In this document: piece by piece, positions 54,090 through 55,735 of the stretch | How positions within the stretch are numbered: the first letter of the stretch is position 1 | Layout of the letters: each line of letters begins with the position of its first letter | NCBI GenBank assembly: GCA_020629635.1 | Contig: JAHDCX010000004.1 | Location: 1 to 64,000, forward strand | Source of the DNA: Acidimicrobiales bacterium | Lineage (GTDB): Bacteria > Actinomycetota > Acidimicrobiia > Acidimicrobiales > SHLQ01 | Direction of reading: 5' to 3' | DNA length: 64,000 nucleotides | Program-made: the position numbers and the translations under genes | The notes under the pieces: generated by a model | Database searches by the model: none | What the model was told of the DNA's origin: nothing | What the model saw: only the letters and a program-made list of their open reading frames with translations

Positions 54090-54695
54090 TCAGAGAATGT
54101 CCGACGACTGTGCCGACACCAGATCGTCGTCGATCAGCTGCACCCGATCGAGTGCCCGGATCTCTCCGTCGGGCGAAACGTCGACCCAGAGACCGCCGAC
54201 GTTGTCGATGCGGCCACGCCGGACACCCGAGCGGTCCTCGAGGAGGTACATGATGCCGCCATGGACGAAGGCGACCGCTTCGCCGTGAGGGTCGGCAACA
54301 TGGGCCGCAACCTCCCGGAGGCCCCGTTCGACCCGGACCCAGAGCTCGTCGTCGCTTTCGTATCCCGGAGGTCGTTTGTCGGCCTGGAGGTAGCCGGGCC
54401 AGTCCCGCTCGATGTCGTCGCGCGTGAGCCCGCTCCACTCACCGGCGCTGCGCTCGATCAGATCGGGCATCGGGATGATCGGCCCAATCCCGAGATGATT
54501 GGTCACGATGAACGCTGTCTCCGCCGCACGCTGCAGCGTGGAAGAGGCAATCACGTCGAATCCCCCGATGCGTTCGGCGGCGGCACGGGCCTGGGCGCGG
54601 CCCAGCTCCGAGAGCGGGATGTCGGCCTGGCCCTGCCACCGGCCCTCGGCGTTCCATTCGGATTGGCCGTGGCGGACGAGAAGAATGCGTGGCAT
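54090..54695 (-). CDS. Histidine phosphatase family protein
   Basis: This 201-residue protein is of the phosphoglycerate-mutase-like phosphatase superfamily. LLVRHGQSEWN has the catalytic His9 (RHG). SSTLQRAAETA and VAFVHGGIM supply the second Arg and His. The substrate is unknown. ATG 54695 is preferred over an upstream TTG. It is divergent from the MoaD-like gene, whose start lies only 24 bases away. Confidence 0.9.
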   Translation of the reverse strand: MPRILLVRHGQSEWNAEGRWQGQADIPLSELGRAQARAAAERIGGFDVIASSTLQRAAETAFIVTNHLGIGPIIPMPDLIERSAGEWSGLTRDDIERDWPGYLQADKRPPGYESDDELWVRVERGLREVAAHVADPHGEAVAFVHGGIMYLLEDRSGVRRGRIDNVGGLWVDVSPDGEIRALDRVQLIDDDLVSAQSSDIL

Positions 54696-54718
54696 GGCGC
54701 TCAACGTACACTCCCCGC

Positions 54719-54955
54719 ATGGCCACCCTTCGCCTCTTCGCCACCATTCGAGTCGCAGCCGGCACGGGCAAGGACACCTTCGACGAATCGACGGTTGGTG
54801 ACGTGCTCGACGCCGCCGTCCAACGCTACGGCGACGGGTTCGCCGAGCTTCTTCCGATCTGTCGCGTCTGGCTCAACGGTGCCGCCACCGATCGTGACGC
54901 CGCGGTGACCGAGGCCGACGAGGTGGCACTTCTCCCGCCGGTCTCGGGCGGCTGA
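54719..54955 (+). CDS. MoaD/ThiS-family sulfur carrier protein
   Basis: This 78-residue ubiquitin-fold protein begins MATLRLFATIRVAAG and ends in the Gly-Gly tail (LLPPVSGG) that is adenylated and thiocarboxylated. Molybdopterin synthesis is the likeliest use, but no other moa genes are nearby. TACACT (54707-54712) ends six bases before the ATG, suggesting a leaderless mRNA. Confidence 0.88.
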   Translation: MATLRLFATIRVAAGTGKDTFDESTVGDVLDAAVQRYGDGFAELLPICRVWLNGAATDRDAAVTEADEVALLPPVSGG

Positions 54956-55027: not shown

Positions 55028-55576
55028 ATGACCCCCGAACTCGACGTCGTCCTCGATCCGACGTTCACCACACAGCTCGCCGACCGCGACATGGGTGAGC
55101 TGCGGGCCATGCGCACTCGCTGCCAAACCCTCGAGAACAGCCTGTCGTTCATGCGACGGCTGATCCAAGGGCGCCTCGACATCGTCGGCGGCGAAATGGA
55201 ACGCCGCCGCGATGGCGGAGAATCCGGTGACACGTCCGAACTGATCGGTCGCCTCCCCGACATCCTCGCCGAAGGATCGCGATCCGGTGAAGGCCTCGCC
55301 GCCGTCCGCCCGCCCCAGCCCATGGAGCCCGACCACGAGGTGATGGCGCAACTCCAGCAACGACTCGACGCGGTTGCCTCTTCGGACACGCTCGGCGGCG
55401 TCGCAGACATGGACTCGGGAGCCCTCTCGGCCATCGTTCGAGACCTCACCACGCTCGAGGACGAGGTCTCTCATGCCCGGCGCGGCATCCATGCGGTGAT
55501 CGATCGGCTCCAGACCGAAGTCACCCGCCGCTATGCCTCCGGCGAGGCCACCGTCGACGGTCTCCTGCAGTCGTAG
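55028..55576 (+). CDS. RsiG-like c-di-GMP-binding protein
   Basis: The 182-residue helical protein contains E36-x3-S40-x2-R43-x3-Q47-x3-D51, an exact match to the c-di-GMP-binding motif known from RsiG, the anti-sigma factor of WhiG in Streptomyces. A second copy is E144-x3-S148-x2-R151-x3-H155-x3-D159, with His replacing Gln. The two helices would form the antiparallel pair that binds a c-di-GMP dimer. TGGAGG (55012-55017) precedes the ATG, and TAGGTT (54991-54996) may be the -10. Identification rests on motif and architecture. Confidence 0.78.
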   Translation: MTPELDVVLDPTFTTQLADRDMGELRAMRTRCQTLENSLSFMRRLIQGRLDIVGGEMERRRDGGESGDTSELIGRLPDILAEGSRSGEGLAAVRPPQPMEPDHEVMAQLQQRLDAVASSDTLGGVADMDSGALSAIVRDLTTLEDEVSHARRGIHAVIDRLQTEVTRRYASGEATVDGLLQS

Positions 55577-55598: not shown

Positions 55599-55671
55599 GC
55601 CGCCTTAGCTCAGTTGGTAGAGCAACGCTCTTGTAAAGCGTAGGTCATCGGTTCGACCCCGATAGGCGGCT
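55599..55671 (+). tRNA. tRNA-Thr (anticodon TGT)
   Basis: A full cloverleaf is present: acceptor GCCGCCT/AGGCGGC, D arm GCTC-AGTTGGTA-GAGC, anticodon arm ACGCT-CTTGTAA-AGCGT and T arm ATCGG-TTCGACC-CCGAT. The discriminator is T. Anticodon TGT reads ACA/ACG threonine codons. CCA is not encoded. Confidence 0.97.
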
Positions 55672-55735
55672 CTCTTTCGCCGGTGGCCTCCGGGGGTGCT
55701 TGAATCGGTCCCGCGCGCCGACAACACTGGCGCGG

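What the first reader, a model, noticed from the sequence alone, without database searches (positions are those of the whole stretch)
55028..55576. RsiG-like protein with one perfect and one altered c-di-GMP motif
The exact E-x3-S-x2-R-x3-Q-x3-D pattern at 36-51 and an E-x3-S-x2-R-x3-H-x3-D copy at 144-159 match the RsiG architecture. RsiG controls the flagellar/sporulation sigma WhiG in Streptomyces. Finding it in a genome with no sporulation genes in view suggests a broader c-di-GMP-sigma switch. The Gln-to-His change may alter ligand stoichiometry.
Basis: partly seen in the sequence, partly recalled or inferred. Interest (0 to 1): 0.65.

Follow-up and report, generated by a model that had tools for sequence, protein, structure and literature searches.

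The report
RsiG anti-sigma factor in an Acidimicrobiales
This gene encodes an ordinary member of the known RsiG family, a protein that uses the signal molecule c-di-GMP to hold back the sigma factor WhiG, and the same genome carries that WhiG partner; the 'altered' histidine is the usual residue in its relatives.

Summary
Window 55028-55576 (+) encodes a 182-aa protein with motif 1 E36-S40-R43-Q47-D51 and motif 2 E144-S148-R151-H155-D159. It is a clear RsiG: Pfam RsiG PF22802 at 1e-25 with two stretches, and a full-length match to solved S. venezuelae RsiG at 3.6e-12. The host is an Acidimicrobiales relative. Its genome has one RsiG and one bona fide WhiG beside xerC and rpsB, above NCBI's WhiG cut-off. 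It also has 28 GGDEF domains, no flagellin, and five Tad-pilus ATPase loci. RsiG and WhiG are present or absent together across the class (175 both, 100 neither, 21 discordant). The Gln-to-His change is not a peculiarity: Q/H is the commonest pairing among 71 sequences, and a His-bearing RsiG binds c-di-GMP (PMC8325347). Twin-motif RsiG in Acidimicrobiales and a non-sporulation role of the switch are already published. One modest new lead: the genome's only near-consensus WhiG-type promoter lies just upstream of a GGDEF-EAL gene, suggesting feedback on c-di-GMP. Verdict: a new member of a known kind.

The parts
55028..55576 (+). rsiG: twin-motif RsiG anti-sigma factor, 182 aa
   Evidence: Pfam RsiG 1e-25; PDB 6pfj_T 3.6e-12 over residues 17-180; Foldseek top four hits all RsiG
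55133..55180 (+). c-di-GMP motif 1 (residues 36-51), E-x3-S-x2-R-x3-Q-x3-D, on predicted helix 11-62
   Evidence: translation, model secondary structure, survey in which S and R are invariant in 70 of 70 class homologues
55457..55504 (+). c-di-GMP motif 2 (residues 144-159), E-x3-S-x2-R-x3-H-x3-D, on predicted helix 130-170
   Evidence: translation, model; position 155 is H 46, F 12, Y 6, Q 6 in 70 class homologues

Best explanation
This is the RsiG orthologue of an Acidimicrobiales bacterium. When c-di-GMP is high, its two motif helices form an antiparallel coiled coil that binds a c-di-GMP dimer. The armed protein then clamps WhiG (C31:186416-187195 of the same genome) and stops it from directing transcription; when c-di-GMP falls, WhiG is released. 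Because this genome has no flagellin and no type IVa pilus ATPase was found, the regulon is probably neither flagellar nor Rubrobacter-like. It probably includes at least one GGDEF-EAL c-di-GMP turnover gene (feedback) and possibly a Tad pilus operon. Shown here: family membership, both motifs, presence of WhiG, co-occurrence. Inferred: ligand binding, sequestration, regulon.
For: Pfam RsiG and PDB RsiG matches. WhiG matches S. venezuelae WhiG at 320 bits and passes NCBI's WhiG equivalog cut-off, 370 against 343, in the xerC-whiG-M23-rpsB-tsf order. The WhiG contacts K57 and R62 are kept as K37 and R42. RsiG and WhiG occur together or are both absent in 275 of 296 class genomes. There are 28 GGDEF matches. 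The only site with one mismatch or fewer to TAAA-N15-GCCGATAA lies about 33 nt before a GGDEF-EAL start codon. 7 of 29 such sites (two mismatches or fewer) lie just upstream of genes against 0 of 30 reversed-pattern control sites.
Against: The third WhiG contact, G61, is Ser41 here, though Ser also occurs there in 5 of the other 29 class WhiGs inspected. The single-sequence structure model is weak (pLDDT 62, TM about 0.3 to RsiG). The consensus promoter is not enriched in number: 29 target against 58 control sites in this genome, and no enrichment is apparent in the class. Nothing biochemical could be tested.
Confidence: 0.88

Rival explanations
1. It is an RsiG-fold protein whose partner is the second FliA/WhiG-family sigma of the genome (C35:13213-13878), not WhiG.
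For: A second sigma passes the FliA_WhiG subfamily cut-off, 202 against 189.6 bits.
Against: That sigma has K-x3-L-Q where WhiG has K57-x3-G61-R62, so two of three c-di-GMP contacts are lost, and it fails the WhiG equivalog cut-off, 191 against 343. The WhiG orthologue co-occurs with RsiG across the class.
Confidence: 0.05
2. Motif 2 with His (or Phe/Tyr in relatives) has lost ligand contact, giving a half-site protein that binds one c-di-GMP or works independently of c-di-GMP.
For: Position 155 tolerates H, F, Y and Q in the class, so Gln itself is not required there.
Against: E, S, R and D of motif 2 are conserved (69, 70, 70 and 60 of 70). His-bearing C. woesei RsiG binds c-di-GMP and gains about 15-fold affinity with WhiG (PMC8325347). 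His, Phe and Tyr can all stack on guanine (inference).
Confidence: 0.05
3. It is a coiled-coil protein that only resembles RsiG by chance.
For: Coiled coils give weak spurious matches; several weaker coiled-coil families appear.
Against: A curated RsiG match far over cut-off with both halves, a full-length match to solved RsiG, and RsiG-specific motifs invariant at S and R in 70 homologues.
Confidence: 0.01

Closest known systems
Streptomyces venezuelae RsiG (deposited as AmfC), PDB 6pfj/6pfv
   Same: Twin-motif monomer-type RsiG, two E-x3-S-x2-R-x3-Q/H-x3-D motifs on two long helices, WhiG encoded in the same genome
   Different: His in motif 2 instead of Gln; the host group is not known for Streptomyces-type sporulation, so the regulon must differ
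Acidimicrobiales twin-motif RsiGs (3 of 4 species in PMC8325347)
   Same: Same order-level group and same architecture; effectively the same thing
   Different: None established; those sequences were not individually compared here
Rubrobacter radiotolerans RsiG, PDB 7lq2/7lq3/7lq4
   Same: c-di-GMP-armed anti-sigma in a non-sporulating actinobacterium; reported promoters also precede DGC/PDE genes
   Different: Single-motif homodimer; controls type IV pili, whose ATPases were not found here
Conexibacter woesei RsiG
   Same: His at the Gln position
   Different: Single-motif homodimer

Membership tests
RsiG (Pfam PF22802) | Sequence profile above curated cut-off | tested here: met
   89.6 bits against 27, two stretches
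RsiG (Pfam PF22802) | Two E-x3-S-x2-R-x3-[Q/H]-x3-D motifs (twin-motif type) | tested here: met
   Q47 in motif 1 and H155 in motif 2; [Q/H] is the motif as the authors write it
RsiG (Pfam PF22802) | Motifs on two long helices forming an antiparallel coiled coil | tested here: inconclusive
   Helices 11-62 and 130-170 predicted; top four PDB hits are RsiG, but mean pLDDT 62 and TM about 0.3
RsiG (Pfam PF22802) | Cognate WhiG in the genome | tested here: met
   NF004935 WhiG equivalog 370 against 343 bits; xerC-whiG-rpsB order
RsiG (Pfam PF22802) | WhiG keeps the c-di-GMP contacts K57, G61, R62 | tested here: inconclusive
   K37 and R42 kept, G61 is Ser41; Ser is seen in 6 of 30 class WhiGs counting this one
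RsiG (Pfam PF22802) | Binds c-di-GMP | not testable with these tools
   needs fluorescence polarisation or calorimetry
RsiG (Pfam PF22802) | Inhibits WhiG only when armed by c-di-GMP | not testable with these tools
   needs co-purification and in vitro transcription

The most novel reading that the evidence does not exclude
In a non-flagellate Acidimicrobiales lineage the RsiG-WhiG switch controls its own ligand pool (a GGDEF-EAL gene with the genome's best WhiG-type promoter) and a Tad pilus operon, which would be a third biological output for this switch.
Probability: 0.25. Interest if true: 0.5.

Novelty: new member of a known kind. Interest (0 to 1): 0.25.

Why it matters
It places the complete RsiG-WhiG pair in a group where, as far as I could find, nobody has studied its output, and shows class-wide co-retention of the two proteins. 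It also corrects the reading of the His as an anomaly. The main open question it touches is what WhiG controls in actinobacteria that neither swim nor sporulate; the GGDEF-EAL promoter is a concrete site to test.

Tried and rejected
NCBIfam gave no model for RsiG itself. A genome-contig scan with the RsiG protein returned no confirmed relatives (the patterns came from one sequence); the second scan used WhiG to place the organism. The class-wide promoter count showed no apparent enrichment over the reversed control, so no regulon is claimed from counts. No site with two mismatches or fewer to the promoter pattern lies in the window, and the 12 sites with three are within chance. A Gln-to-His effect on stoichiometry was considered and set aside. 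My first motif survey read one strand only and was redone on both strands.

Full report
Observation. The ORF at 55028-55576 (+) encodes 182 aa. Residues 36-51 (ENSLSFMRRLIQGRLD) fit E-x3-S-x2-R-x3-Q-x3-D exactly and residues 144-159 (EDEVSHARRGIHAVID) fit with His for Gln. Pfam gives RsiG PF22802 at 1e-25, 89.6 bits against a cut-off of 27, in two stretches. phmmer against the PDB gives S. venezuelae RsiG (6pfj_T, deposited as AmfC) at 3.6e-12 over residues 17-180, then the single-motif Rubrobacter RsiGs. A single-sequence AlphaFold model is only moderate (mean pLDDT 61.9) but shows two long helices, 11-62 and 130-170, carrying the motifs; the four best Foldseek hits in the PDB are RsiG chains, with TM only about 0.3. 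The identification is therefore secure on sequence; the fold comparison only agrees with it.

The organism. No name is given for the window's genome. Its WhiG is 90% and 89% identical to those of two uncultured Acidimicrobiales MAGs, and the next best named records are mostly Acidimicrobiales or Acidimicrobiia. I take it to be Acidimicrobiales (inference).

The partner. The genome holds one RsiG. It has two proteins above the FliA_WhiG cut-off. The first, C31:186416-187195, matches S. venezuelae WhiG at 320 bits and passes NCBI's WhiG equivalog cut-off, 370 against 343. It sits in the order xerC, whiG, M23 peptidase, rpsB, tsf (gene names other than whiG were read from the translations). The second, C35:13213-13878, fails that WhiG cut-off (191 against 343) and has Leu-Gln in place of the G61-R62 contacts, so it is an unlikely RsiG partner. 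In WhiG the published c-di-GMP contacts K57, G61 and R62 (PMC8325347) correspond to K37, S41 and R42. The Gly-to-Ser change also appears in 5 of the other 29 class WhiGs inspected, and all five of those genomes also have RsiG.

Co-occurrence. In 296 genomes of the class, counting WhiG as present at E of 1e-60 or better, RsiG and WhiG are both present in 175, both absent in 100, RsiG alone in 7 and WhiG alone in 14 (tallied, Fisher p about 6e-54). That p-value is not corrected for relatedness. The pattern nevertheless recurs inside several families: in f4, f5, f7, f14, f80 and f82 some genera have both and others neither. Five of the seven RsiG-only genomes are under 94% complete. This is what an obligate partnership predicts.

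The His. In 70 class homologues aligned to the window protein, S and R are invariant in both motifs. Position 47 is Q 48, H 22; position 155 is H 46, F 12, Y 6, Q 6; the pair Q/H is the commonest, 37 of 71 with the query counted (the set was taken from the better matches, so it is not random, and one of the 70 is the window genome's own copy). The published survey of 130 twin-motif RsiGs, mostly from other families, names motif 1 as the only place where His often replaces Gln. In this class His is common in motif 2 as well, and aromatic residues also occur there. The paper reports that RsiG of C. woesei, with His, binds c-di-GMP at 25 uM and at 1.7 uM with WhiG, against 12 and 0.9 uM for Gln-bearing R. 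radiotolerans, and that His can make the same stacking contact. An altered stoichiometry is therefore unlikely.

What it may control. The genome has no flagellin match. Its five T2SSE ATPases all match TadA or VirB11-type models best and score far below the PilB and PilT cut-offs, so neither a flagellar nor a Rubrobacter-like type IVa pilus output is expected. It has 28 GGDEF matches. A scan for TAAA-N15-GCCGATAA found exactly one site with at most one mismatch, TAAA-N15-GCCGATAC at C26:35666-35692. It overlaps a transporter stop codon and ends about 33 nt before the likely GTG start of a gene with GGDEF and EAL domains. In R. radiotolerans five of twelve mapped WhiG-type promoters precede DGC/PDE genes, so the location was foreseeable rather than picked from many. 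Of 29 sites with at most two mismatches, 7 lie just upstream of a gene, against 0 of 30 sites of the reversed control pattern (by hand, one-sided Fisher about 0.005; the control sample is the first 30 of 58 by listing, and genes were called with a simple script). One of the 7 is the start of a Tad operon (cpaB; TCAA-N15-GCCGATCA). Against this, site numbers are not enriched (29 against 58 control), and no enrichment is apparent across the class. The regulon is a lead, not a result.

Verdict. This is a well-supported RsiG-WhiG pair. Twin-motif RsiG in Acidimicrobiales and non-sporulation functions of the switch are published (PMC8325347). The finding is a new member of a known kind.

Noticed in passing
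C26:35666-35692 of the window's genome (L059:1501-1527; gene L218:5726-7550): The only near-consensus FliA/WhiG-type promoter in the genome (one mismatch) precedes a GGDEF-EAL gene by about 33 nt.
   Followed up: partly
C31:341279-341305 (L051:5280-5306): A two-mismatch WhiG-type site about 47 nt before the likely GTG start of cpaB, first gene of a Tad pilus operon directly after rpsA.
   Followed up: partly
C35:13213-13878 (L010:1315-2277, minus): A second, divergent FliA/WhiG-family sigma factor lacking two of three RsiG/c-di-GMP contact residues; role unknown.
   Followed up: partly
window 54689-54955 (+): A ThiS/MoaD-like small protein directly upstream of rsiG; ThiS homologues also lie close to rsiG in 12 of 29 other class loci, often with a histidine phosphatase, so the neighbourhood is partly conserved.
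   Followed up: partly
window 55599-55672 (+): tRNA-Thr (TGT) immediately downstream of rsiG.
   Followed up: no
genome G492 (same order), promoter counts: 17 sites within one mismatch of TAAA-N15-GCCGATAA against 3 for the reversed control, unlike most class genomes; it may carry a real FliA/WhiG regulon.
   Followed up: no
class homologues, position equivalent to window protein residue 155 (window 55490-55492): Phe (12) and Tyr (6) replace Gln/His in motif 2 of some RsiGs, suggesting that any stacking side chain is allowed there.
   Followed up: partly
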